Shown here in pieces: positions 9,191 to 36,277 of a DNA stretch of 64,000 nt. How positions within the stretch are numbered: the first letter of the stretch is position 1; each line of letters starts with the position of its first letter. A program made the translations under genes and the position numbers. This stretch comes from an uncultured Bacteroidia bacterium. GTDB lineage: Bacteria > Bacteroidota > Bacteroidia > Bacteroidales > UBA932. The stretch covers positions 186,001 to 250,000 of the forward strand of contig CADAAA010000002.1 in assembly GCA_902785785.1 (NCBI GenBank), read 5' to 3'. Below the pieces are notes generated by a model. That model was not told the DNA's origin. It ran no database searches and saw only the letters and a list, made by a program, of their open reading frames with translations.

Positions 9191-10027
9191 ATGAAACTTA
9201 TAATCGACAGCGGGGCGACGAAGGCCGACTGGTGTCTGGTGGAAGGCGGACAGGTCGTACGGAGGTTCAAGTCCGCCGGTATGAACGTGTCCGTGCTGAC
9301 GCCCGAGGCCGTGGCGACCATTGCCTCCGAAGCGTCGGCCGGCCTGGAAGGGCCGGCGGTCTCGGAGGCGTATCTGTACGCCGCCGGCCTGATCGAAGGC
9401 TCCGATGCCGCCGCTTTAGCGGTGGAGGCCGTTTCGGCAGCTTTCGGTGGCACTCCTGTCGAGGGCGCCTCGGATATGCTGGCCGCCGCCCGCGCAGCCT
9501 GCGGCCGTGCCGAAGGCCTCTGCGCCATCCTCGGTACCGGCTCCAACAGCTGCCTCTACGACGGTTCCGCCATAGTCCATATTGCCCGCTCGGGCGGTTT
9601 CATCCTGGGTGACGAGGGCGGGGGAGCCTGTCTCGGCAAGCTTTTCATCGCCGACTACGTCAAGGGGCTTGTCCCCGAGCCGCTGGCTTCGGAGTTCGGA
9701 CAAGCCTTTGAAGTCGATTATATGACTATCGTCCGCAGGGTATACAAGGAAGCGGCCCCGTCCGCCTATCTCGGTAGTTTCGCTCCATGGATACTTGAGC
9801 ATCGGGGTGACCCTTATGTGGACGCGCTGGTGGAACGCAATCTCACTGACTTTTTCGAGCGTTCGCTGCTGCGGCACGGTCGCCGCGACCTGCCCGCCGG
9901 CTTTGTCGGCGGTTTCGCGGCCGCGTGTGGGCCGCAGCTGCGCGCTGTCGCGCAGCGCTGCGGCGTCAGCATCTCACGTATCCTGGCCTCTCCGATGGAC
10001 GGCCTTGTCGAGTATCACAGCCTATGA
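9191..10027 (+). CDS. BadF/BadG/BcrA/BcrD-type ATPase, likely N-acetylglucosamine kinase
   Basis: A 278-residue ASKHA-fold kinase. The phosphate-1 motif IIDSGATKADW starts the protein, ILGTGSNSCLYDG forms phosphate-2 and GGFILGDEGGGACLG is typical of the N-acetylglucosamine kinase subgroup. The likely role is phosphorylating an amino sugar released from peptidoglycan or glycans; substrate not certain. It directly follows the FKBP gene and overlaps recR by four bases (ATGA). Confidence 0.83.
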   Translation: MKLIIDSGATKADWCLVEGGQVVRRFKSAGMNVSVLTPEAVATIASEASAGLEGPAVSEAYLYAAGLIEGSDAAALAVEAVSAAFGGTPVEGASDMLAAARAACGRAEGLCAILGTGSNSCLYDGSAIVHIARSGGFILGDEGGGACLGKLFIADYVKGLVPEPLASEFGQAFEVDYMTIVRRVYKEAAPSAYLGSFAPWILEHRGDPYVDALVERNLTDFFERSLLRHGRRDLPAGFVGGFAAACGPQLRAVAQRCGVSISRILASPMDGLVEYHSL

Positions 10028-10779
10028 TCGAAAAGTATCCTTCTGAACTCCTCCAGAATGCAGTCGAGGCGATCAGTTCGCTGCCCGGCGTGGGTTCGCG
10101 CAGCGCCCTGCGCCTGGCAATGCATCTGCTGGGCCAGCCTAAGGAGAACGTCCACCATTTCACGGACGCCATCAACCGCCTGGCCGACGAAGTGCAGTAC
10201 TGCCCCGAGTGCATGATGATCTCCGACAACGGGCTTTGCTCCATCTGCTCTGACCGCCACCGTGACCACCGCACCATCTGCGTGGTGGAGAATGTCCGGG
10301 ATGTCATGAGCATCGAGAATACCGGCCAGTACCGGGGAGTGTACCACGTACTCGGCGGCATCATCTCGCCTATAGCCGGAATCGGCCCTTCTGACCTCAC
10401 CATCCGCCAGCTCGTCGACCGCCTCCGCCGCCTCACCGGAGCCTCGGCTGGGGAAGGGTGTCCTGAAAATTTGTGCCACCCTCGGCAACATAAGAGGGGG
10501 GGACCCATTGCTGACGGCAATGGGGGGGGTCCTGCGGAGCAGGACAATTTTCAGGACACCCTTCCCCAGCAGGAGGCTACTGATATAGAGGTGATTCTGG
10601 CTCTGCCGGGTGATGTGGAAGGGGAGACGACGGCGTTCTATATCTATAGGCAGATAGCATCCCTGGGGGTAAAGGTGTCGGCGCTTGCCAGGGGGCTGGG
10701 CTTTGGAGATGACCTCGAATATGCCGATGCGTTGACACTGGGGCGTTCACTCGTGAACCGCCAGCCTTTCAAACCTTGA
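10024..10779 (+). CDS. recR: Recombination mediator RecR carrying an in-frame palindromic insertion
   Basis: A DNA-repair protein of the RecFOR pathway. At 251 residues it is about 45-50 longer than usual. Helix-hairpin-helix (SLPGVGSRSALRLA), zinc finger (CPECMMISDNGLCSIC) and Toprim motifs (CVVENVRDVMSIE, YHVLGGIISPIAGIGP, GETTAFYIYR, ARGLGFGDDLEYAD) are all intact. The extra residues, about 142-183 (AGEGCPENLCHPRQ onward), are encoded by the palindromic element at 10447-10570, between LVDRLRRLTG and EVILALPG. No stop is introduced and the frame is kept, so the product is probably made with the insert as a surface loop of the Toprim domain. Starts inside the previous gene's stop; mntP follows 4 bases later. 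Confidence 0.93.
   Translation: MIEKYPSELLQNAVEAISSLPGVGSRSALRLAMHLLGQPKENVHHFTDAINRLADEVQYCPECMMISDNGLCSICSDRHRDHRTICVVENVRDVMSIENTGQYRGVYHVLGGIISPIAGIGPSDLTIRQLVDRLRRLTGASAGEGCPENLCHPRQHKRGGPIADGNGGGPAEQDNFQDTLPQQEATDIEVILALPGDVEGETTAFYIYRQIASLGVKVSALARGLGFGDDLEYADALTLGRSLVNRQPFKP
10447..10570. repeat. Palindromic element, copy 1, in frame inside recR
   Basis: A 124-base element bounded by perfect 25-base inverted repeats (10447-10471 and 10546-10570). Inside are an 8-bp hairpin CCCATTGC/GCAATGGG (10504-10524) and a 6-bp hairpin TCCTGC/GCAGGA (10530-10544). Bases 10465-10498 are identical over 34 positions to 17573-17606 in copy 2. It encodes ENLCHPRQHKR...GPIA in the recR frame. No transposase is present, so it resembles a non-autonomous repeat such as REP/MITE or the Rickettsia palindromic elements that insert inside proteins. 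Confidence 0.88.
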
Positions 10780-10783
10780 TCCT

Positions 10784-11344
10784 ATGAGAGAAGTGATCCT
10801 TGCCCTCCTGCTGGCACTTTCGCTCTGTGCGGACTGCTTTGCCGTGTCGCTTTGCTCGGGTGTCACTATGAGGAGCACGCGGCGCCGTCAGGTACTGATG
10901 GTGGCGCTTGTGTTCGGCATCGTGCAGGCTGGACTGCTGCTGGCCGGCTATTTCTTCGGCGACCTCTTCGTCGGCTATATCGAGAAGTTCGCTCACTGGA
11001 TAGGTTTCCTCCTTCTGCTGTATGTCGGCGGATCTATGATTCTTGAAGCCGTCAAGGGCAAGGAAGAGGCGCGGGACCTGAACGGGATCAGGAATATCAT
11101 CGTCGCATCCGTCGCTACCAGCATCGACGCCCTCGCTGTAGGCATTTCACTTTCCATGGACTTGGAACCTGTGCGTTCCGCCCTAATGAAGGGAGCAGCA
11201 GTCTTTATCGTGACTGTCCTGACAGTGGTTGCCGGTATACTCGGCGGCAGGCGGATAGGTACGCGTTTCGGCCGCAGGGCTGAGTTTGCCGGCGGCTGCG
11301 TGCTCATCCTCCTCGGCCTGAATATACTGCTGGGCGTTTTTTAG
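10784..11344 (+). CDS. mntP: Manganese efflux pump MntP
   Basis: A 186-residue inner-membrane protein with six hydrophobic segments. The repeated acidic motifs of the family are visible in helix 1 (LCADCFAVSL) and helix 4 (SIDALAVGISL). It exports Mn(II). Lies 4 bases after recR and probably shares its transcript; no yybP-ykoY-like leader was recognised. Confidence 0.92.
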   Translation: MREVILALLLALSLCADCFAVSLCSGVTMRSTRRRQVLMVALVFGIVQAGLLLAGYFFGDLFVGYIEKFAHWIGFLLLLYVGGSMILEAVKGKEEARDLNGIRNIIVASVATSIDALAVGISLSMDLEPVRSALMKGAAVFIVTVLTVVAGILGGRRIGTRFGRRAEFAGGCVLILLGLNILLGVF

Positions 11345-11356
11345 GCCCGGAAGTGC

Positions 11357-11385
11357 TTGATTAACCGAAAAAATACATATCTTTG
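11357..11385 (+). promoter_or_regulatory. Promoter of corA
   Basis: TTG (11357-11359), an 18-base spacer and TATCTTTG (11378-11385) match the Bacteroidota vegetative promoter pattern. Confidence 0.65.
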
Positions 11386-11387
11386 CA

Positions 11388-11469
11388 GGCTGACTTCTCC
11401 GTAATGTCAGCCAGACACGAGTGTTAAACCCTCCCGGGCCATACCGTCCGGGCACAGAAGGGAAGAGGT
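11388..11469 (+). promoter_or_regulatory. Structured 5' leader of corA
   Basis: An untranslated leader of roughly 75-80 bases between promoter and ATG. It holds a 7-bp hairpin GGCTGAC/GTCAGCC (11388-11412) and a GC-rich 5-bp hairpin (11433-11437 with 11448-11452), then an AG-rich ribosome-binding stretch. A magnesium-responsive function is conceivable but no known riboswitch class was recognised. Confidence 0.35.
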
Positions 11470-12417
11470 ATGATCAGCATTTTCTACAGGCTTGGCGGTA
11501 AGGTAGATTACTTCCAGTCCGAAACGGAGTTCGCAAAACTGAAGAGGGAGGATGTCCTTTGGATCGACCTCCTCGATCCTTCAGGCGAAGAGAAAAGAGC
11601 CACGGAGATATTCCTTGGTACGGAGATCCAGAGCCGTGCGCAGGCGGAGGAGATCGAGAGTTCATCCCGTTTCTCCGAGTCCGATACGGCCATTTTCGCC
11701 AATACCAACTATCTTACCCCTACCGGAGACGAGTACAATTCCGACCCTGTTTCTTTCACCATTGTCGGAGACACCCTCACCACACTGCGCGAGATTCCGC
11801 TGCGAAGCATCACCAGCCTCCAGCAGAAGCTCTGTGCAAAGCCTGCGTTGTTCCCGAGCGGATGGAACATCTTCGTGACCATGCTGGACCAGCGCGTCGA
11901 CCTCGACGCCGATATGGTGGAGATCCTCGGAAAGGAGACTGCGCGTTTCTCCAAGCGCATCAACCAGCAGGAGGATATCAATGAGGACTTCCTCCTGGAT
12001 ATCAACCAGTTGCAGGAGAATACCATGATAGTCCGCGAGAATGTCGTGGACAAGCAGCGCCTCATCTCGAACCTGCTCAAGAGCGACCGTTATCCTTCCT
12101 CGCTGGAGCCCAGGCTCAACGTCCTGCTCCAGGATATCGCATCGCTTATCAACCATGCCAATTTCAACTTCGAAAGGCTTGAATATCTGCAGGATACGGT
12201 GCTTGGTCTGATCAACTTGGACCAGAACCGCATCATGAAGATCTTCACCCTGATCTCCCTGCTTATCATGCCTGCCACGCTCGTCGCCAGCTTCTACGGC
12301 ATGAACGTCAAGCTCCCGCTTGCCGGGATCGGCATCGCATGGGTGTTCATCCTCGTCATCATGGTGCTCTTCGCATTCGCGCTTTGGTTCACCTTCAAAA
12401 AGAAAAAATTGCTCTGA
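11470..12417 (+). CDS. corA: CorA-family divalent cation (Mg/Co) transporter
   Basis: A 315-residue protein: cytoplasmic N-terminal funnel domain, long helix, and two C-terminal transmembrane segments with the selectivity motif YGMN (in ASFYGMNVKLPL), ending in a basic tail FKKKKLL. It transports Mg(II), possibly Co(II). Own promoter and structured leader; not co-transcribed with mntP by distance. Confidence 0.93.
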   Translation: MISIFYRLGGKVDYFQSETEFAKLKREDVLWIDLLDPSGEEKRATEIFLGTEIQSRAQAEEIESSSRFSESDTAIFANTNYLTPTGDEYNSDPVSFTIVGDTLTTLREIPLRSITSLQQKLCAKPALFPSGWNIFVTMLDQRVDLDADMVEILGKETARFSKRINQQEDINEDFLLDINQLQENTMIVRENVVDKQRLISNLLKSDRYPSSLEPRLNVLLQDIASLINHANFNFERLEYLQDTVLGLINLDQNRIMKIFTLISLLIMPATLVASFYGMNVKLPLAGIGIAWVFILVIMVLFAFALWFTFKKKKLL

Positions 12418-12434
12418 AAAGAGCCATTTATTTC

Positions 12435-12465
12435 TTTGGAAATCAGAATATTTTACCTACCTTTG
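12435..12465 (+). promoter_or_regulatory. Strong promoter of rpsA
   Basis: TTTG (12435-12438), a 19-base spacer and TACCTTTG (12458-12465) are an almost ideal Bacteroidota promoter. The leader to the ATG at 12555 is about 80 bases. Confidence 0.75.
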
Positions 12466-12554
12466 CACGCTTTTCGCCCGGCGTGCTTTTTTTGTGCGCC
12501 CCGCAAAGCACGAGAAATAATGTTAAACCCCTAGTTTGTTTCAATTAAACAATT

Positions 12555-14327
12555 ATGGCAGAATTTTTAAACGCATCCGTTGCTCCCGAGAATTTTGACT
12601 GGGACGCTTTCGAAGGCAGCACCTCCGTCTACGGCGGTGAAGAGAAAGAGAAGATCCGCGAGGCTTACGACCAGACCCTTTCCAAGGTCGTCGAGAATGA
12701 AGTCGTTGAGGGCGAAGTCACCGCTATCAACAAGCGCGAGGTCATCGTGACCATCGGCGGAAAGAGCGAAGGTGTCATCTCCGCTCCCGAGTTCCGTTAC
12801 AACCCCGACCTCAAGGTCGGCGACAAGGTCGAGGTCTATGTAGAGTCCGCCGAGGACCGCAAGGGCCAGCTCATCCTTTCCCACAAGAAGGCCCGCGCCC
12901 TCAAGTCTTGGGACAGAGTCAACGAAGCTTACAACAATAACGAGATCGTCAAGGGTTTCGTCAAGACCCGCACGAAGGGCGGCATGATCGTCGACGTGTT
13001 CGGCATCGAGGCCTTCCTCCCCGGTTCCCAGATCGACATCAAGCCTATCCGTGACTATGATGCCTACGTAAACCAGACCATCGATTTCAAGATCGTCAAG
13101 ATCAACCAGGAGTTCCGCAACGTCGTCGTCTCCCACAAGGCCCTTCTCGAGGCCGAGCAGGAGCAGAAGAGGGCCGAGCTCATCTCCAAGCTGGAGAAGG
13201 GCCAGGTGCTCGAGGGTACCGTCAAGAATATCACCAACTACGGTGTGTTCGTGGACCTCGGCGGTGTAGACGGTCTCATCCACATCACCGACCTCTCCTG
13301 GGGTCGCGTCAACCATCCCGAGGAGTTCGTCCAGCTCGGCGAGAAGATCCAGGTCGTCGTCCTCGACTTCAACGAGCAGCAGAAGCGCATCGCCCTCGGT
13401 TACAAGCAGCTTACTCCCCATCCTTGGGACGCTCTCGACGAGAACCTCAAGGTTGGTGACAAGGTCAAGGGCAAGGTCATCCTCATCGCCGACTACGGCG
13501 CATTCGTGGAGCTTGTCCCCGGTGTCGAGGGTCTCATCCATGTTTCCGAGATGAGCTGGTCGCCCAGACTCCACTCCGCTCAGGAGTTCCTGAAGGTTGG
13601 TGACGAGGTCGAGGCCCAGATCCTGACCATCGACCGTGAGAACCGCAAGATGTCCCTCGGACTCAAGCAGCTCACCGTCAATCCTTGGGAGAATATCCGC
13701 ACCAAGTATCCTATCGGCTCGCAGCACAAGGCCGTCGTCCGCAACATCACCAACTTCGGCGTTTTCGCCGAGCTCGAGGATGGCGTCGAGGGTCTCGTCC
13801 ACATCAGCGACCTCTCCTGGAACAAGATCAAGCATCCTTCAGAGATGGTTGCCGTTGGTGACACCATCGACGTCCAGATCCTTGACTTCGACGAGGCCAA
13901 CCGCAAGCTCAGCCTCGGTCACAAGCAGCTCCTTCCCAACCCTTGGGACGAGGTTGAGGCCAAGTATCCCGTCGGTTCCACCGTCGAGGGTACCATCGCC
14001 GCCGTTACCGACAAGGGCGCTACCATCACCCTTGACGGAGAGGCTGAGGGCTTCGCTTTCAACCGCGAGATCCTCAAGGAGGACGGCAAGCCCGCCACTG
14101 TCGGCGAGACCCTTCCGTTCCGCGTCATCGAGCTTCGCCGCTCGACCCGCCGCATCCTTCTCTCGCACGTGAGGACTTATTCCGAGGCTAAGGAGAAGGC
14201 TGTCGCCGCTGAGGCTGACAACACCAAGAAGGCCGTCAAGAAGATCAATTCTTCCGTCGAAAGGACCACTCTCGGTGACATCGACGCCCTCGCCGCTCTC
14301 AAGGAGAAACTCGAGAAAGGTGAGTAA
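12555..14327 (+). CDS. rpsA: 30S ribosomal protein S1
   Basis: A 590-residue protein with six consecutive S1/OB-fold RNA-binding domains, visible as repeated units such as GTVKNITNYGVFVDLGGVDG, GKVILIADYGAFVELVPGVE and AVVRNITNFGVFAELEDGVE. The first two and last are more divergent, as usual. It helps the 30S subunit bind mRNA. Codon use is highly biased, consistent with heavy expression. rnz starts two bases after its stop codon. Confidence 0.97.
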   Translation: MAEFLNASVAPENFDWDAFEGSTSVYGGEEKEKIREAYDQTLSKVVENEVVEGEVTAINKREVIVTIGGKSEGVISAPEFRYNPDLKVGDKVEVYVESAEDRKGQLILSHKKARALKSWDRVNEAYNNNEIVKGFVKTRTKGGMIVDVFGIEAFLPGSQIDIKPIRDYDAYVNQTIDFKIVKINQEFRNVVVSHKALLEAEQEQKRAELISKLEKGQVLEGTVKNITNYGVFVDLGGVDGLIHITDLSWGRVNHPEEFVQLGEKIQVVVLDFNEQQKRIALGYKQLTPHPWDALDENLKVGDKVKGKVILIADYGAFVELVPGVEGLIHVSEMSWSPRLHSAQEFLKVGDEVEAQILTIDRENRKMSLGLKQLTVNPWENIRTKYPIGSQHKAVVRNITNFGVFAELEDGVEGLVHISDLSWNKIKHPSEMVAVGDTIDVQILDFDEANRKLSLGHKQLLPNPWDEVEAKYPVGSTVEGTIAAVTDKGATITLDGEAEGFAFNREILKEDGKPATVGETLPFRVIELRRSTRRILLSHVRTYSEAKEKAVAAEADNTKKAVKKINSSVERTTLGDIDALAALKEKLEKGE

Positions 14328-14329
14328 GG

Positions 14330-15256
14330 ATGGACTTTACGCTTAAGGTTATGGGCTCGGCTTCGGCCAAGCCCGTTCCCGAAAGATTCCAGAGCGCCCA
14401 AGTACTTTCAGTACGGGGGCGCTCCTTTTTAATCGACTGCGGCGAAGGCGTGCAGACCCGCCTGCAGCAGTTCGGGGTGTCTCCGATGAAGATCGATTCG
14501 ATATTCATCTCGCACATCCACGGAGACCATGTCTTCGGCATTTTCGGTCTGCTCTCCACGATGGGGATGCTCGCGCGTCCCACACCCCTGAATATCTATG
14601 CTCCCGTGTCCTTCGGACCCATACTCAAGTTCTTCCTGTCGTACTACGGGGAGGGAGTGGGTTTCGAGATCCGGCATATTCCTCTGAAGATGAAGGAGCC
14701 GGAAACGGTATATGACACGAAGTCCTTCGAGGTGCTGGCATTCCCGCTGAACCATGGGATTGAGACCTTCGGCTTCCTGTTCCGGGAGAAGAAACCTCCG
14801 CTCAATGTGTGGAAACACATGCTGTCTCGTTATGGGTTCACTCTTACGGAGATAGGGACCCTGAAGCGCGGCGAGGACGTCGTGCGCGATGACGAAGTCA
14901 TCCGCTGCGCCGACGCCGCGTACGAGCCGTGGGAGCCGCGGAGCTTCGCTTACTGCTCCGACACGGCACCGTTCCCCGAACTGGCTGGTTGGGTCAGAGG
15001 AGTCGACCTCCTGTACCATGAGGCGACTTATACTGCCGAGCATGCCGACCTGGCCGAGAAGCGTCACCATTCGACGACGCTCCAGGCGGCGCAGTGTGCC
15101 CTCGACGCAGGCGCGAAGCGCCTCGTCATCGGGCACTACAGCAGCCGCGAGCGCAACGCCTCTGTCTATGAGGCAGAATGCCGCACTGTCTTTCCGCAGA
15201 CCTATGCAGCCTCCGACGGATCCGTCTACGATATCCCGCTGGTAAAGAAAGACTGA
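14330..15256 (+). CDS. rnz: Ribonuclease Z
   Basis: A 308-residue metallo-beta-lactamase-fold nuclease that trims the 3' ends of tRNA precursors. The metal motif HIHGDH begins at residue 62, with later ligands in FPLNHGIE, YCSDTAP and IGHYSSR. Length is typical. It sits two bases behind rpsA, so both are probably on one transcript. Confidence 0.95.
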   Translation: MDFTLKVMGSASAKPVPERFQSAQVLSVRGRSFLIDCGEGVQTRLQQFGVSPMKIDSIFISHIHGDHVFGIFGLLSTMGMLARPTPLNIYAPVSFGPILKFFLSYYGEGVGFEIRHIPLKMKEPETVYDTKSFEVLAFPLNHGIETFGFLFREKKPPLNVWKHMLSRYGFTLTEIGTLKRGEDVVRDDEVIRCADAAYEPWEPRSFAYCSDTAPFPELAGWVRGVDLLYHEATYTAEHADLAEKRHHSTTLQAAQCALDAGAKRLVIGHYSSRERNASVYEAECRTVFPQTYAASDGSVYDIPLVKKD

Positions 15257-15329
15257 ACAAGCCTGTCCTAAGGCGGTTTTTCGATCACTATACGTGAGGA
15301 ATCGTCAATAATTGTTAACTTTACCACAT

Positions 15330-16511
15330 ATGAAAAGACGTGCATCCTTCCTTGCGATAGCCTTTGCCGCGATTGTCCTTTTCGTGTCCGCGGCTGATAC
15401 ACCCCAACAGCGCTATATCGACCGTTGGGCTGCCACTGCGGTCCGCGAGATGTACCGCAGCGGCGTTCCTGCAAGCATTACCCTGGCCCAGGGTATCCTC
15501 GAGTCGCGTTCCGGCCTTTCCGCTCTTGCGGTCGAAGGCAACAATCATTTCGGAATCAAATGCCACAAGGACTGGAAGGGCAAGACCATGCGGGTGGACG
15601 ACGACAGGAGGCGCGAGTGCTTCCGCGTATATGACACTGCGGAAGAGTCGTTCCGCGACCATTCCGATTTCCTCCGCTATTGGGACCGCTACAAATTCCT
15701 TTTTGATTTCAATACAAAGGATTATGAATCATGGGCTTATGGCCTGAAGAAAGCGGGCTATGCCACCGATCCGTCCTATCCTGAGAAGCTCATCAAGATC
15801 ATCGAGGAGAACGGCTTGTCGAAATACGATTCTATGACCCAGGCCCAGGCTGCACGTGCGTCTTCTTCGTCATCAAAGGCAACTCCTGCTCCTCCCAAGT
15901 CCTCGGATAACGCTTCTTCCAAGTCTTCATCAAAGACATCATCCAAGGCTTCCGTAAAGGCTTCCGCCAAAGAGGCTAAAGCAGCCGCCAGGGTATCGAA
16001 GGCTGAGGAGCGCGAGGCGGCGCGCGCTGCCCGCAGGGCCGCCCGCCGCGAGCGCCTCGCCGCCGCCGAGGTAATCCCCGACGAGATCCCCGAGGCGCCC
16101 AATGCCATCGAGGAGGCCGTTCTCGTCACGCCTGCGGCTGCCGAGGAGTTCCACTTCAGCCTTACGCGTCCGGTCTATACCCGCAACGGCGTGCCTTTCG
16201 TGTACTCTGTGGAAGGGGAGACTTACTCCAGTATCGCCTCGTCGTACAATCTCTTCCCCAAGGAAATTTTGAAGATCAACGACTTGAGCTCCGACACGCG
16301 TCTCCTTCCCGGTACCGTCGTCTATATCCAGCAGAAAAAGAACCAGGCGGAGAAAGGACTTGACAAATATATCGTCGAGTCTGACGGGGAGAACCTCCGC
16401 GACATCTGCCAGCGTTTTGCCGTGCGTATGTCCGCCGTCAACAAACTCAACGGCTTCAGCGCCGGCCATGTCCTCCGTGAAGGCGATACGATCATTCTCA
16501 GGAAACCTTAG
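15330..16511 (+). CDS. Exported glucosaminidase (Flg_hydrolase-like) with two LysM domains
   Basis: A 393-residue protein with a signal peptide (MKRRASFLAIAF...). Residues about 25-170 match the mannosyl-glycoprotein endo-beta-N-acetylglucosaminidase fold (VPASITLAQGILESRSG, NHFGIKCHKDWKG, YGLKKAGYATDPSYPEKL). A low-complexity Ser/Lys/Ala linker with repeated SSKS and RAARR follows, then two LysM repeats (VEGETYSSIASSYNLFPKEI and SDGENLRDICQRFAVRM). It probably cuts peptidoglycan glycan strands during growth. The linker may span periplasm or wall. mltG follows three bases later, a peptidoglycan-remodelling pair. Confidence 0.9.
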   Translation: MKRRASFLAIAFAAIVLFVSAADTPQQRYIDRWAATAVREMYRSGVPASITLAQGILESRSGLSALAVEGNNHFGIKCHKDWKGKTMRVDDDRRRECFRVYDTAEESFRDHSDFLRYWDRYKFLFDFNTKDYESWAYGLKKAGYATDPSYPEKLIKIIEENGLSKYDSMTQAQAARASSSSSKATPAPPKSSDNASSKSSSKTSSKASVKASAKEAKAAARVSKAEEREAARAARRAARRERLAAAEVIPDEIPEAPNAIEEAVLVTPAAAEEFHFSLTRPVYTRNGVPFVYSVEGETYSSIASSYNLFPKEILKINDLSSDTRLLPGTVVYIQQKKNQAEKGLDKYIVESDGENLRDICQRFAVRMSAVNKLNGFSAGHVLREGDTIILRKP

Positions 16512-16514
16512 CTC

Positions 16515-17543
16515 ATGAAAAGGACCCTTACATACATATTGGCCGCCGGAGCCATAATTGCAGCTGTCGCCGCTATGTTTGCGTACCGCTGGTACACTGA
16601 CAACAAGAGGCCCAATTTCAGCCGTGAGACTGTCCTGTACGTGTACCCGGGGATGGATGCGAACAAAGTCTTCCGCATGGTCGCGGACTCTGCGGGCGTC
16701 CTGCGGCCCAATAGCCTGGAGCGCGCCTTCAATGACAAGAAAGTGGCCGAATACATGCAGCCCGGCCGCTATGTCGTAAAGCCGTCGTCTTCGAGCGTCT
16801 ATGTCGCACGTATGCTCAACAACGGCTGGCAGACTCCCACGCGGCTCGTGCTCTCCGGCACTATGCGCCGCAAGGGCGACATCGCCCGCAAGATAGGCAA
16901 TCAGATGCTGGTGGACAGCGCCGAAGTGGCTGCCGCCCTGGATGACGACGTCCTTCTGGCAAAGTACGGCTTCAACTCCACAAATGTCTTCTCTCTCTTC
17001 ATCCCGGACACTTACGAGATGTACTGGACTGCCTCGGTAGAGGAGATCCTGCAGAAACAGAAAGACGCATATGATGCATTCTGGACACCGGAGAACGTTG
17101 CCAAGGCTGAGAAGCTGGGACTCACCAAGGAGGAGGTGAGCATCGTGGCTTCGATCGTCAAGGGAGAGACCAATTACGAGCCTGAGATGCCTTCCGTGGC
17201 AGGCGTGTATCTCAACCGCCTCCGGATCGGTATGCTGCTGCAGGCTGATCCCACGGTTGCCTATTGCTTCGACTATGAGCCCAACCGCATCCTGCTCCGT
17301 CACCTTCAGGTAGATTCACCGTACAATACCTACAAGTATCCCGGCCTTCCTCCCGGCCCCATAGCCGTACCTACTAAGGCCTGCCTGAACGCCGTGCTCA
17401 ATCCCGATCCGCACGACTACCTCTTCTTCTGCGCCAATTCCGATTTCAGCGGCACCCACAAGTTCGCTTCCACCCTCTCGGAGCACAACCGCAACGCCCG
17501 CGACTTCCAGGCCGCCCTCAACCGCCGCAATGCCTCCCGCTGA
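16515..17543 (+). CDS. mltG: Endolytic murein transglycosylase MltG
   Basis: A 342-residue inner-membrane-anchored enzyme with one N-terminal transmembrane helix (ILAAGAIIAAVAAMFAYRWY), a LysM-like subdomain and the YceG catalytic domain. The catalytic region includes IVASIVKGETNYEPEMPSVA, with the expected Glu, and NTYKYPGLPPGPIAVP. It cuts nascent glycan strands and limits their length. Last gene before the palindromic element, with relA/spoT converging from the other side. Confidence 0.94.
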   Translation: MKRTLTYILAAGAIIAAVAAMFAYRWYTDNKRPNFSRETVLYVYPGMDANKVFRMVADSAGVLRPNSLERAFNDKKVAEYMQPGRYVVKPSSSSVYVARMLNNGWQTPTRLVLSGTMRRKGDIARKIGNQMLVDSAEVAAALDDDVLLAKYGFNSTNVFSLFIPDTYEMYWTASVEEILQKQKDAYDAFWTPENVAKAEKLGLTKEEVSIVASIVKGETNYEPEMPSVAGVYLNRLRIGMLLQADPTVAYCFDYEPNRILLRHLQVDSPYNTYKYPGLPPGPIAVPTKACLNAVLNPDPHDYLFFCANSDFSGTHKFASTLSEHNRNARDFQAALNRRNASR

Positions 17544-17547
17544 TCCT

Positions 17548-17683
17548 TTCTCCGAGGGGAAGTATGCCCCACGAAAATTTGTGCCACCCTCGGCAACATA
17601 AGAGGGAGGGGCCCATTGCATCACAATGGGAGGGGCCGAACGAAGTGAAGGCAATTTTCGGGGGCATACTTCCCCTCGGAGAA
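17548..17683. repeat. Palindromic element, copy 2, between convergent mltG and relA/spoT
   Basis: A 136-base element with 31-32-base terminal inverted repeats (17548-17579 and 17653-17683) that are perfect except for one bulged A at 17571. The inner stem CCCATTG/CAATGGG is the same as in copy 1, and 34 bases (17573-17606) are identical. The outer arms differ from copy 1 (they share only GGGGAAG and the AATTTTC end) yet still pair with each other. It fills the whole spacer between two gene ends and may act as a two-way transcription terminator. The core is also open in the frame used inside recR. Confidence 0.88.
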
Positions 17684-17688
17684 GGTTG

Positions 17689-19851
17689 CTAGACGCGCTT
17701 GACCTTGATGACGTGCCTGAGGGCTGAGATCTGTGAGATGACCTTGTCGAGCTCCATGTTTGAGGGGACGAGGATGCGGGCTGAAATGTCGTAGCAGCCG
17801 TTGCGGTGATCCTCTTCGACGTTGAGGCTGCGGATGGATGCCTTGAAGTTGCCGACTACCTCCATGATCTTGGACATGACCGAGAAATCCATGTCCGCGA
17901 GGATCTTGAGGGTGCAGAGGAAATCTCCGGAACTCGGAGTCTCTGACCATACGACCCTTTGGATACGGTAAGGATAGCGGTCGAGCAAGCGCGCAGCGTT
18001 AGGGCAGGTGATCCTGTGGATCTTGATGCCTTCGCCGCGCGTCACGAAGCCGAATACATCGTCGCCGAACACTGGGTTGCAGCACTTTGCCATGCGGTAA
18101 TCCAGCCCCTTGACATCCTTTGCATTAAGTACAAGGATGTCATCCGACGATTTGTTGCCCTTCCAGTCCTTGACGGTCAGTTCCTCAGGCTTGAGCTGGG
18201 TGTCCTCTGCCGGAGCGTTCTGCGCTTGTATGAAGGCTTTGATGTCATTGATGTCCACAGTCCCTTCGCCGACAGCCCCGAGGAAGGAGTTGATGCTCGA
18301 GTACTTGTACTTCTTCATCAACTCGCGCATCATGCTGTCGGGGAGTTCGAGTTTCCAGTTCTTGAGGCGGCGCTCCAGCAGTTCGCGACCTTCGGCGGCC
18401 TTCTTGAACTCGGCCTCCTTCAGCTCGTGCTTGATGCGGCTCTTGGCCTTGGAGGTGACGACCCAGTTCAGCCAGTCCTGGGTGGGCCGCTGGTTCTTGC
18501 CGGTCATGATTTCCACCACGTCTCCAGTCGCAAGCTTTTCCTTGATGGATACTGCCTTGCCGTTGACGCGGGCTCCTGTGCAACGCGCGCCTATGCCGCT
18601 GTGGATGTTGAATGCGAAATCCAGCACGGACGAGCCTGCGGCGAGCTTTCTGAGTTCGCCGGAAGGCGTGAATACGAATATCTCCTTGGACGGGGGTGCC
18701 GGCAGGTCGTCTTCACCGTCATAATCCGGCGGAGACAGCGTCTCTGACGAGCCGTGCTCGAGTGAACTGCGCACGGCATTCAGCCACGCGTCGAGAGCAG
18801 CCTCCTGCTTGATGCCCTTGTAGGACCAGTGCGAAGCCAGGCCGCTCTCGGCCATCTCATCCATGCGCTTCGTGCGGATCTGCACCTCAAGGCATGCTCC
18901 TTCGGAGTTCTTCACGGTGATGTGAAGCGACTCATAGCCGTTGGGCTTGGGATTGGATATCCAGTCGCGCAGGCGGGAAGTGTCGGACTCGTACTCCTCT
19001 GTCACGAAGCCGAAAACCTTCCAGCAGAGGGCATGTTCTACAGCTCGGTCATCCTCGCAGTCTATGATGAAGCGTATGGCGAACACATCATACACGCCAT
19101 CAAAATCCACCTTCTGCTTCTGCATCTTCTTCCAGATGGAGAATGCGGTCTTGGTGCGGGCCTTGAGCTTGTATTTGATACCGGCTTCGGAGAGCGTGGC
19201 CTTGAGCGGCTCGATGAACTGCTTGGTGATGACCTGCCTGTCTCGTTCGGTGGCTTTGAGGCGGTTGGTGATGGCGCGGTACTCCTCCGGCTCGGCATAT
19301 TTGAAATAGATGTCCTCCATCTCGCTCTTCATGTTGTAGAGGCCGAGCTGGTGGGCGAGAGGAATGTAGAGGAGGAGGGTCTCGAGCTGCTTGCGCTCGC
19401 GCGATGCCTTGGGGAAGAGCTCAAGGCTGCGCATGACCTCGAGGCGGTCGGCGAGCTTCAGTACCACTACGCGGGGATCGGTGGAGTAGCTGACTATCAG
19501 TTTCTTGTAATTATCGGCTTCGAGGCGGGTATCCTTGGGCTTTATCGTTGCGATCTTGTTCAGTCCGTCCACCATGGTGAGGATGTCCCTGCCGAACGAC
19601 CCGGTATGGCGGAGATCGATGTCCTGCCTCTCGCGCGTGGCTTCGTGCAGGAACACCGCCGCGACGCACTCGGGCCCGAGACCAATCTCGTCCGCGGCTA
19701 TCTTCGCGACATTTTCCGCATGCTCGATGAAAGGTGCGCCGTTGCCGCGCTTCAAGCCTTCCAATGCATTGGAAGCGATGGCGTATGCGGCGGCCACCAG
19801 TTCTTTGTCCCTGCCTGTATAGGCGGGGAAGAGCTCTTCTATCCTTTCCAT
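17689..19851 (-). CDS. RelA/SpoT-family (p)ppGpp synthetase with degenerate HD domain
   Basis: A 720-residue long RSH protein. Order: HD region (about residues 40-160), synthetase (RTKTAFSIWKKMQKQ, GVYDVFAIRFI, GYESLHITV, EVQIRTKRMDE), TGS (FVFTPSGELRKLAAGSSVLD), helical/zinc-finger part (YRMAKCCNPVFGDDVFGF) and C-terminal ACT (LCTLKILADMDFSVMSKIME). The HD metal motif reads FLHEATRE instead of the LLHDVVEDT of active hydrolases, so ppGpp hydrolysis is probably lost and this is a RelA-type synthetase. Stringent-response alarmone production is the expected role. A TAACTTTG box lies upstream at 19880-19887. Confidence 0.93.
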   Translation of the reverse strand: MERIEELFPAYTGRDKELVAAAYAIASNALEGLKRGNGAPFIEHAENVAKIAADEIGLGPECVAAVFLHEATRERQDIDLRHTGSFGRDILTMVDGLNKIATIKPKDTRLEADNYKKLIVSYSTDPRVVVLKLADRLEVMRSLELFPKASRERKQLETLLLYIPLAHQLGLYNMKSEMEDIYFKYAEPEEYRAITNRLKATERDRQVITKQFIEPLKATLSEAGIKYKLKARTKTAFSIWKKMQKQKVDFDGVYDVFAIRFIIDCEDDRAVEHALCWKVFGFVTEEYESDTSRLRDWISNPKPNGYESLHITVKNSEGACLEVQIRTKRMDEMAESGLASHWSYKGIKQEAALDAWLNAVRSSLEHGSSETLSPPDYDGEDDLPAPPSKEIFVFTPSGELRKLAAGSSVLDFAFNIHSGIGARCTGARVNGKAVSIKEKLATGDVVEIMTGKNQRPTQDWLNWVVTSKAKSRIKHELKEAEFKKAAEGRELLERRLKNWKLELPDSMMRELMKKYKYSSINSFLGAVGEGTVDINDIKAFIQAQNAPAEDTQLKPEELTVKDWKGNKSSDDILVLNAKDVKGLDYRMAKCCNPVFGDDVFGFVTRGEGIKIHRITCPNAARLLDRYPYRIQRVVWSETPSSGDFLCTLKILADMDFSVMSKIMEVVGNFKASIRSLNVEEDHRNGCYDISARILVPSNMELDKVISQISALRHVIKVKRV

Positions 19852-32229: not shown

Positions 32230-32300
32230 TTGTAAATCATTTATCTACAATGTGTTATAGGAACGGTCTGGTTTGATGCCGGATCGTTTCTTTTTAAAGC

Positions 32301-33617
32301 CTACTTGTGCCACATATTCTTGAGCTGCCAGTATGAATACTGTGGTCCGGAACTATAATAACTATGGGACGGCTTTGATTCTTCGGTCTTGATGATCCTT
32401 GGATTGATCAGTTTGTCAATATGTTTCTTAGAGAGAAGGGGGTCCTTTCCTTTGATGAATGGATCGATGAAATCGGCTTTTGATTTCATCCATCCAATCT
32501 CATCCATTTTCTCCTGATCTTCGGAAAGACCTTGTTTCTCCAGATGTGCTTCAAAGGCGGCGATGTATTCCCGGATCATGCAGGAGACTCTCCATCGATT
32601 TACATCAAAGAGCAGATCCTGGACTTTTTCCAGTTCCGCGTCTTTAAGTGCCTGAATCCGTTTGCGTTCTTCCTCCTCAAGACGTTTCCGCTCTTCTTCC
32701 TGTCTTCTGCGTTCTTCTTCCAATTTCCTTTGGCGCTCCCTCTCATCTCGGTCATCCGCGATTATTCCCAGAACCTCGATGACATGCTGTATCTTTTCCT
32801 CCAGTTTCGTGTATTTGGTATCCTGTGCTGCACATAGGTCATATGAAGAACCACAGTGGTGCTCGTACCGATCGCATTCAAATCTCAATACTCCACTACC
32901 GACGGTATGATACCGGTCCTTGGTCCCATCGTCATTGGTTGCCTGGCGATAAACTTCTCTCAGGAAGGTTTGGATTTCGTGGCCGCGTACGATGATGAAG
33001 GTAGTACATTCCGGACGATACTGGCTCTTGTCATTGACTATTTTCAGGTCATATCCTTTGGCCTTGGCAGCCTTGATGATGGTGGAATAGATGCGGAGAG
33101 CCCTGTCCTCTTGCTCTTGTGACACTCGCATGGAAAGCCATTTGTCTGCCTTGCATTGAAATGGGTTTTTGGCATTCCATGGATTATTCTCGCGGAAATT
33201 CTTCTCACGGAGTTTCGCTTTCGTGTCCAGGATAATCGGGTCTATTGCATAGAGGACATCCGGCACCCGATAGAGGGGGGCGATTTCATTTTCTTCAGAA
33301 GGCAGTTCTTTGGTCGGATACTTTCCGCCCGGATCTTTCTTGGCTTCCGTTTTCTTCGGTTGTACCGAGAAATATTTCTTGATGATATATTCATCGGTAT
33401 TGATCAAGACTGAATCATCCTTTGTCTCGGGCAATGCTGTCTTCTGCGCTGGCTTCCCGAACTTCAAAGCACTCCAATATCCGCTGGAGGGCCGTGGGAT
33501 GTTGTATTTAAAGCAGATAGCTTTCAACTCAGTTTGCTTAAGACCAAGGGCTTTTTCGGTTTTCCCGACACCTTCGGTCCACATCATGTCATAGATTTGT
33601 TTCCTTGTCAGTTCCAT
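32301..33617 (-). CDS. Island protein of unknown function with N-terminal LTR-YW module and coiled coil
   Basis: A 438-residue protein, not assigned to a named family. The N-terminus (LTRKQIYDMMWTEGVGKTEK ... IPRPSSGYWSALKFGKPAQK) matches a pattern I recall from scattered mobile-element proteins (LTR-E-LY--VW ... IP-P--GYWA-L--GK), probably a DNA-binding fold. Residues about 290-345 form a strongly charged coiled coil (RQRKLEEERRRQEEERKR). A DUF-like centre holds ECTTFIIVRGHEIQTFLREV. A fragment of a second copy's C-terminus survives at 36222-36277. Probable operon with the helix-turn-helix gene, 2 bases apart. Confidence 0.7.
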   Translation of the reverse strand: MELTRKQIYDMMWTEGVGKTEKALGLKQTELKAICFKYNIPRPSSGYWSALKFGKPAQKTALPETKDDSVLINTDEYIIKKYFSVQPKKTEAKKDPGGKYPTKELPSEENEIAPLYRVPDVLYAIDPIILDTKAKLREKNFRENNPWNAKNPFQCKADKWLSMRVSQEQEDRALRIYSTIIKAAKAKGYDLKIVNDKSQYRPECTTFIIVRGHEIQTFLREVYRQATNDDGTKDRYHTVGSGVLRFECDRYEHHCGSSYDLCAAQDTKYTKLEEKIQHVIEVLGIIADDRDERERQRKLEEERRRQEEERKRLEEEERKRIQALKDAELEKVQDLLFDVNRWRVSCMIREYIAAFEAHLEKQGLSEDQEKMDEIGWMKSKADFIDPFIKGKDPLLSKKHIDKLINPRIIKTEESKPSHSYYSSGPQYSYWQLKNMWHK

Positions 33618-36154: not shown

Positions 36155-36221
36155 TTGTAAGTTATTAATTTATAGTGTATTATGGAAACGATTCGGCGAA
36201 TACCGGATCGTTTCTTATTAT

Positions 36222-36277
36222 AGCCTACTTATGCCACATATTCTTGAGCTGACAGTATGAATACTGTGGTCCGGAAC
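36222..36277 (-). pseudogene. Remnant of a second copy of the 438-residue island gene (C-terminus)
   Basis: The minus strand encodes SGPQYSYCQLKNMWHK and a stop, nearly identical to the C-terminus of the 32301-33617 gene (SGPQYSYWQLKNMWHK). Upstream coding sequence is gone, replaced by the ATPase-associated palindrome region. Confidence 0.75.

What the first reader, a model, noticed from the sequence alone, without database searches (positions are those of the whole stretch)
10447..10570. Palindromic element inserted in frame inside recR
RecR gains about 42 residues from a 124-base element with perfect 25-base terminal inverted repeats, set between a helix and a strand of the Toprim domain. 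No stop arises and every catalytic motif is intact. This resembles the Rickettsia palindromic elements (protein-tolerated selfish repeats), which are not a usual feature of Bacteroidales, and here the host gene is itself a DNA-repair protein. The related core of copy 2 is also open in the same frame (ENLCHPRQHKR...GPIA), as if the element tolerates translation.
Basis: partly seen in the sequence, partly recalled or inferred. Interest (0 to 1): 0.85.

Follow-up and report, generated by a model that had tools for sequence, protein, structure and literature searches.

The report
Hairpin insert family inside housekeeping genes
The insert in this DNA-repair gene is one copy of a mobile-looking hairpin sequence of Bacteroidales bacteria that sits in frame inside housekeeping genes and whose two ends differ from site to site yet still match each other.

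Summary
In detail: window 10447-10570 is a 124-bp element with perfect 25-nt inverted arms, in frame in recR. It is one of 16 dispersed places in this genome; its core occurs in at least 116 stretches of other genomes (80 titles listed, all Bacteroidales-type). The core is a conserved, covarying structure (stem with pseudoknot, then two hairpins). The outer arms differ between loci, yet each pair is complementary. Of 14 full copies here, 12 lie in frame inside conserved genes (recR, uvrA, uvrD, atpG, tilS, truB and others), in either orientation. Enzymes acting on DNA or RNA are over-represented, as reported for REPs in other phyla. A close relative has empty recR, uvrA, tilS, mtaB and aroK sites. 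At tilS and mtaB one relative each carries similar arms with the core inverted. Best explanation: a protein-tolerated, non-autonomous mobile hairpin that works like Rickettsia palindromic elements without being shown to be one; replication template switching would keep arms paired and flip the core. Empty sites favour the 5' arm being target DNA and the 3' arm its inverted copy: suggestive, not proven. The mobilising enzyme is unknown.

The parts
10024..10779 (+). recR, host gene of the in-frame insert (251 aa)
   Evidence: TIGR00615 recR, E 4.4e-61, two matched stretches, the best ending just before the insert; translation
10447..10471 (+). left (5') arm, locus-specific; of the 20 arm bases compared, 14 align with the recR empty site of G193 and 13 are identical
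10472..10498 (+). conserved core: stem NNT-GCC/GGC-AnNN with loop ACCCTC, whose CCCTC can pair with GAGGG (pseudoknot)
   Evidence: pattern; (pseudoknot pairs invariant in 78 of 78 rows; two outer stem pairs covary)
10504..10524 (+). second hairpin, CCCATTGC / GCAATGGG, variable but largely complementary among copies
10529..10545 (+). third hairpin GTCCTGC-GGA-GCAGGAC (triloop of GNA type in many copies, read by eye)
10546..10570 (+). right (3') arm, perfect inverted copy of the left arm
17548..17683 (+). copy 2 of the element, intergenic between convergent mltG and rsh-type genes; core 17580-17606; arms unlike those in recR
   Evidence: absent from G193 and G140

Best explanation
The insert belongs to a family of small, non-autonomous palindromic mobile elements of Bacteroidales for which I found no description. 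Shown: a conserved structured core (about 60-80 nt) lies between two arms of roughly 20-25 nt that are complementary to each other but differ from locus to locus; in this genome 12 of 14 full copies sit in frame inside conserved genes; close relatives have empty sites. Inferred: the core is inserted by a trans-acting enzyme; translation continues through it as a disordered surface loop, so only in-frame, stop-free insertions in tolerant loops survive. The right arm is, at least partly, an inverted copy of the target DNA to the left, made by snap-back or template-switched synthesis primed by the short complementary ends of the core. Later template switching inside the hairpin keeps the arms complementary as they drift and occasionally inverts the core. 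Copies are gained or lost repeatedly at the same permissive sites.
For: 16 places at E<=0.002 in G000, two self-matches left out; 14 cores with 0 or 1 mismatch. Core 94% but arm 43% mean identity over 91 pairs of G000 copies (shuffled arms 37%). Complementarity of a copy's own outer arms exceeds the 99th percentile of 1000 mismatched pairings in 126 of 149 copies and their maximum in 114. Covariation: 411 double-change cells against 136.6 shuffled; all 11 arm pairs counted have changes on both sides. Empty sites: recR and copy 2, uvrA, aroK, hemW, atpG, tilS and mtaB; seven of these empty loci hold no perfect inverted repeat above 10 nt within 240 nt, against 25 in recR. The uvrA empty site in G193 (flank 93% identical) has about the loop length of element-free relatives (three compared by eye) and matches the left arm. 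Keeping the left arm fits the empty site better than keeping the right arm in 9 of 10 comparisons. Core inversion with similar arms: tilS G000/G214, mtaB G000/G140. Copies shared by site: core 23-25 of 25 identical while arms drift. 36 of 60 ORFs running through elements have a named model. Template switching is known to homogenise arms and invert spacers (abstracts of PMC8604942 and PMC8794818).
Against: No mobilising enzyme is linked: RAYT-type transposases occur in 6 of 6 genomes with several copies but also in 3 of 10 without pattern matches, none of 10 such loci carries the core, and the RAYT of G008 has palindromes of its own on both sides. No target duplication: direct repeats equal the control over 118 copies. 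Arm origin: one of ten comparisons (tilS) favours the right arm by 0.5 points; at recR, aroK and hemW removing both arms scores better than keeping the left; by locus the sign test is only p=0.07. G193, the closest relative, is empty at uvrA, aroK, mtaB and tilS where the more distant G214 is filled, which needs losses or repeated gains, so G193 sites could be deletion scars. The near-invariant core in drifting shared copies could mean selection for a function, and my searches start from the core, so copies with a decayed core are under-counted. For 14 of the 36 named ORFs the model covers only one side of the element, which then may lie in a linker, at a terminus or in a spurious extension.
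Confidence: 0.65

Rival explanations
1. It is a functional structured RNA (or ssDNA) element kept by selection at each site, for example a regulator in mRNAs of RNA-modifying and DNA-repair enzymes; covariation of stems then reflects selection for structure, not template switching.
For: Pseudoknot invariant in 78 of 78 aligned copies and strong covariation elsewhere; core conserved in shared copies while arms drift; G-T pairs exceed A-C pairs in the arms, 70 to 40; host genes enriched for nucleic-acid enzymes, 24 of 36 named against 2 to 4 of 16 in neighbour ORFs.
Against: Patchy: 10 of 61 genomes (G000 included) match the core pattern, and 6 of the 9 relatives have a single match; both orientations occur at the same gene site, so no fixed RNA strand; a close relative does without it at several genes; no relevant Rfam match in the 8.5 kb searched.
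Confidence: 0.15
2. It is a REP-like element mobilised by the RAYT (TnpA_REP, HUH) proteins of these genomes, acting on single-stranded hairpins at replication forks. This overlaps with the best explanation, which leaves the enzyme open.
For: RAYT-type genes in 6 of 6 genomes with several copies against 3 of 10 without pattern matches, p=0.011, genomes chosen by me; two histidines and a tyrosine invariant in 8 aligned proteins; GACG, i.e. CGTC on the other strand, follows the third hairpin in 55 of 78 copies, recalling the CGTC foot of one REP class; gene classes hit match those of REPs in other phyla (PMC3733652 section 15).
Against: No core copy at any of 10 RAYT loci; RAYTs of the G000/G193 pair and the G140/G214 pair are only 29-33% identical and lie beside different genes; the RAYT of G008 has another palindrome on both sides and that of G140 has one downstream; no GTAG in the 14 columns 5' of the core in any of 78 copies.
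Confidence: 0.3
3. The elements insert into pre-existing palindromes, so both arms are older than the core and cores are swapped.
For: Same sites carry different core types and orientations, and at the L021 methyltransferase-like site three relatives carry a different palindrome (family B) with the same outer arm GGTTCGG/CCGAAC (read by eye).
Against: Seven empty loci (uvrA, recR in two genomes, tilS, mtaB, aroK, copy 2) have no perfect inverted repeat above 10 nt within 240 nt.
Confidence: 0.1
4. Chance palindrome or assembly artefact in recR.
For: Only one assembly of this genome was available; no reads.
Against: At least 116 stretches in many assemblies; truncated copy in recR of G140; fold z -9.55.
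Confidence: 0.01

Closest known systems
Rickettsia palindromic elements (RPE; Ogata et al. 2000 and 2002, seen here only through passages of PMC10969869 and PMC3733652)
   Same: Palindromes of about 150 bp, dispersed (44 in R. conorii by that review), in frame in unrelated genes; truB is hit in R. conorii too (PMC3733652 section 15)
   Different: Different phylum; arms are locus-specific here, a pseudoknot core is conserved, and the core is inverted in some relatives. RPE sequences themselves were not compared.
REP/REPIN elements with RAYT transposases (GTAG and CGTC REPs; PMC3733652)
   Same: Short palindromes, some inside genes, many in DNA repair and replication genes (uvrA, uvrD, truB named); RAYT-type genes present in the element-bearing genomes tested; CGTC next to one hairpin in many copies
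   Different: REPs are 20-40 bp (abstract); here mostly 110-140 bp with locus-specific outer arms, and no copy was found at a RAYT gene
MITEs
   Same: Short, non-autonomous, terminal inverted repeats, dispersed
   Different: MITE termini are shared between copies and usually give target duplications (recalled); here termini differ per locus and no duplication signal was found
Template-switch (quasipalindrome) hairpins (PMC8794818, PMC8604942; abstracts and outlines seen)
   Same: Reverse-complement copying, arm homogenisation and spacer inversion are the process proposed here
   Different: Those papers describe changes at existing inverted repeats or RNA genes; here a repeated, structured core lies between the arms

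Membership tests
Rickettsia palindromic elements | palindrome of about 100-150 bp, dispersed in the genome | tested here: met
Rickettsia palindromic elements | in-frame insertion in unrelated protein genes | tested here: met
   (by sequence; translation not tested)
Rickettsia palindromic elements | sequence similarity to an RPE family, or occurrence in Rickettsiales | tested here: inconclusive
Rickettsia palindromic elements | palindrome sequence shared along its whole length between copies (recalled) | tested here: not met
   arms 43% identical against 94% for the core
REP / REPIN with RAYT | 20-40 bp hairpin with a GTAG or CGTC tetranucleotide at its foot | tested here: inconclusive
   GTAG absent 5' of the core in 78 of 78; CGTC (other strand) beside the third hairpin in 55 of 78, but three of its bases are part of the stem; whole element mostly 110-140 bp
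REP / REPIN with RAYT | copies flank the RAYT gene | tested here: not met
   no core in the stretches held around 10 RAYT genes
MITE | terminal inverted repeats shared between copies | tested here: not met
MITE | target-site duplication | tested here: not met
   direct repeats equal the mismatched control over 118 copies; short or decayed ones could be missed
Rfam RNA families | match to a curated model | tested here: not met
   window 10000-18500, both copies included: one match at E<=1, elsewhere and below its cut-off

The most novel reading that the evidence does not exclude
A new mode of insertion: the element carries only a structured core, and on joining to target DNA its end folds back and copies the target flank, so that every insertion builds its own locus-specific hairpin; the same fold-back process later keeps the arms paired and flips the core, making a self-maintaining, translated palindrome family that exploits loops of DNA- and RNA-processing enzymes.
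Probability: 0.35. Interest if true: 0.86.

Novelty: new variant of a known kind. Interest (0 to 1): 0.74.

Why it matters
Protein-coding palindromes are known from Rickettsia, and intragenic REPs from several other groups. Here a structurally distinct family does the same in Bacteroidales, with many related genomes to compare, empty and filled sites, and the same classes of genes hit. That makes two open questions testable: how such hairpins move, and why they gather in DNA- and RNA-processing enzymes. The locus-specific arms give a natural record of how long hairpins arise and stay paired.

Tried and rejected
Rejected: that both arms are foreign (my early reading of the uvrA and atpG comparisons; withdrawn after the G193 empty site). 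Rejected: target-site duplication. Weak only: a small hairpin in the target (stem of 5 or more in 12% of 116 copies against 3-6% in controls). Without result: viral contigs (0 matches); Rfam; other copies of the recR arm in the genome (none with 0-1 mismatch apart from the element). A first guess at a repeat pattern found nothing. Considered and rejected: self-splicing or ribosomal bypass, because the 12 intragenic copies of G000 continue in the same frame, which neither would require.

Rows dropped before counts: 3 of 152 copies lay too near a locus end; searches used copies with arm score 16 or more (118, 116 and as printed), those with 14 or more (134 of 149); 78 of 102 non-redundant copies went into the alignment; 60 of the 74 ORFs listed went to NCBIfam (L021, L032, L056, L059, L064, L068, L099, L100, L118, L137, L142, L143, L153, L166 left out, several being repeats of the same gene). 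Of the 36 named ORFs, 22 have a model that spans the element or matches in two stretches (the place of the second stretch is not printed), 14 a model on one side only: L019, L036, L039, L084, L087, L090, L094, L109, L111, L145, L146, L155, L158, L160.

Full report
Observation. Arms 10447-10471 and 10546-10570 are perfectly complementary over 25 nt, and recR reads through them. With an exact seed of 14, only this element and copy 2 at 17548-17683 have inverted arms of 20 nt or more close together in the 64-kb window. The two copies share a core stretch (47 nt at 96%) but not the arms. Copy 2 lies between the mltG stop at 17543 and a convergent gene ending at 17689. The strand folds far better than shuffles.

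Copy number and range. The genome of the window (G000, 2.36 Mb) holds 16 places at E<=0.002, self-matches left out; 14 have the core with at most one mismatch to a degenerate pattern, the other two (L023, L024) are interrupted. Among 61 genomes, G000 included, 10 match that pattern, all in the same genus; six of the nine relatives have one match, G036 two, G015 four, G008 six. Viral contigs gave none.

Arms are locus-specific. From the held loci 152 copies were read, 149 usable. Left and right arms of the same copy match beyond the 11 inner nucleotides in 126 of 149 copies at the 99% level of 1000 mismatched pairings. Within G000 the 30-nt core is on average 94% identical over 91 pairs, the 25-nt arms 43% (shuffled 37%). 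Arm ends fall mostly 28-35 nt from the core start.

Structure. In 78 aligned copies the arms, a stem with a pseudoknot partner, and two hairpins form 92.3% standard pairs; 411 cells have changes on both sides against 136.6 in shuffles, and sliding the structure by one column about halves the pairing. The pseudoknot itself never varies and so gives no covariation. Rfam had nothing relevant. Among arm mismatches G-T outnumber A-C, 70 to 40.

Host genes. In G000 twelve of the 14 full copies are in frame in conserved genes: recR, atpG, tilS, mtaB, aroK, uvrA, truB, rsmE, hemW, ribF, uvrD/pcrA, and a methyltransferase-like gene at L021 that I name from its sequence, not from a model. Arok, rsmE, hemW, ribF and uvrD run opposite to the element, as does the L021 gene. 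The other two are copy 2 (intergenic) and L015, which has no frame through it of 90 nt on both sides. Over all loci 86 of 134 well-formed copies lie in a frame open through the element by at least 60 nt on each side; some such frames may be spurious. Of 60 ORFs given to NCBIfam, 36 have a model at E<=1e-20 (22 spanning the element or in two stretches, 14 on one side only), and 24 of the 36 act on RNA or DNA (tilS, mtaB, truB, rsmE, rlmI, rsmF, trmB, RNase R, trmO, fmt; recR, uvrA, uvrD, xerC, polA, ftsK): 16 of 26 distinct genes (my classification). Of 40 neighbouring ORFs 16 were named at the same threshold and 2 (gyrB, recG), 3 (with IF-2) or 4 (with RicT, as recalled) are of that kind. Fisher p: 0.0006, 0.002, 0.007 for 24 of 36; 0.003 and 0.011 for distinct genes against 2 or 3; 0.0009, 0.004, 0.02 for the 15 of 22 with a model on both sides. 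The same bias is described for REPs in other phyla, with uvrA, uvrD and truB named (PMC3733652, section 15 read).

Empty sites and relatives. Close relatives G193, G214 and G140 were found through uvrA. recR is empty in G193 and G214; G140 keeps a truncated copy in frame. Copy 2 is absent from G193 and G140. uvrA is empty in G193, aroK in G193, atpG in G140, hemW in G140 and G214, tilS and mtaB in G193. Seven of these empty loci have no perfect inverted repeat above 10 nt within 240 nt. The uvrA loop of G193 has about the length seen in element-free relatives and matches the left arm of G000. Over 10 comparisons at 8 loci the left arm fits the empty site better than the right in 9; tilS is a near tie the other way; at recR, aroK and hemW removing both arms fits better still. 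This favours a native left arm and a copied right arm but does not prove it, since G193 lacks elements that the more distant G214 has and may carry deletion scars.

Turnover and inversion. At tilS the core is inverted in G214, at mtaB in G140, with arms similar to those of G000. In 19 comparisons at 11 shared sites the 25-nt core keeps 23-25 identical bases while the arm compared ranges from identical to about 69%; only copies with a core could enter this comparison. atpG in G193 has a copy in the opposite orientation with other arms. At the L021 site three relatives carry another palindrome whose outer arm is shared with the G000 copy. Template switching within hairpins is known to homogenise arms and invert spacers (abstracts and outlines of PMC8604942 and PMC8794818), so it could explain compensated drift and inversion without selection; I did not test it directly.

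Mobiliser. A Y1 transposase search found matches in 6 of 6 genomes with several copies and 3 of 10 without pattern matches, all chosen by me (p=0.011). Eight proteins scanned hit the REP-associated tyrosine transposase model, below its cut-off, one also IS200/IS605 weakly, and keep two histidines and a tyrosine. No core lies in the stretches held around ten such genes. The G008 gene has its own palindrome on both sides. CGTC stands beside the third hairpin on the other strand in 55 of 78 copies. The link is a lead only.

Protein. The model of RecR built on 28 aligned sequences keeps its fold at high confidence in most parts (mean pLDDT 78.0), with the insert (142-183) of very low confidence between a helix and a strand. 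Whether the peptide is made is untested.

Verdict. A real, repeated palindromic element, in frame in many genes, working like the Rickettsia elements but differing in its locus-specific arms, conserved pseudoknot core and core inversion. Searches of the held library (listings only, top rows) showed no description of it; PMC3733652 mentions CGTC repeats in Bacteroidetes (passages), which are shorter.

Noticed in passing
L285, L286, L287 (methyltransferase-like gene of G193, G140, G214): A second palindromic insert (family B) with its own core, in frame, whose arms show compensated changes between three species (read by eye); three motif patterns found it only at this site in 1.39 Mb of held sequence.
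   Followed up: partly
L290 (tilS of G140) and L301 2359-2442: A repeated CATCCTTCGGG/CCCGAAGGATG palindrome lies next to the RAYT gene of G140 and also in frame in its tilS, at the loop where G000 and G214 carry the element described here.
   Followed up: no
L305 798-869 and 1964-2007: The RAYT gene of G008 lies between two palindromes sharing TTACGAA..TAACCTTCGGAG, a REPtron-like layout.
   Followed up: no
L307/L308 and L301/L306: RAYT-type genes beside the same neighbours are only 60% identical, although G000 and G193 are about 88-93% identical at other loci: fast evolution. Identity of G140 to G214 elsewhere was not measured.
   Followed up: no
L023, L024, L280: Nested or interrupted copies: one element copy broken by further sequence or another copy.
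   Followed up: no
window 32276-32353 and 36200-36277: A 78-nt direct repeat at 94% identity, 3.9 kb apart.
   Followed up: no
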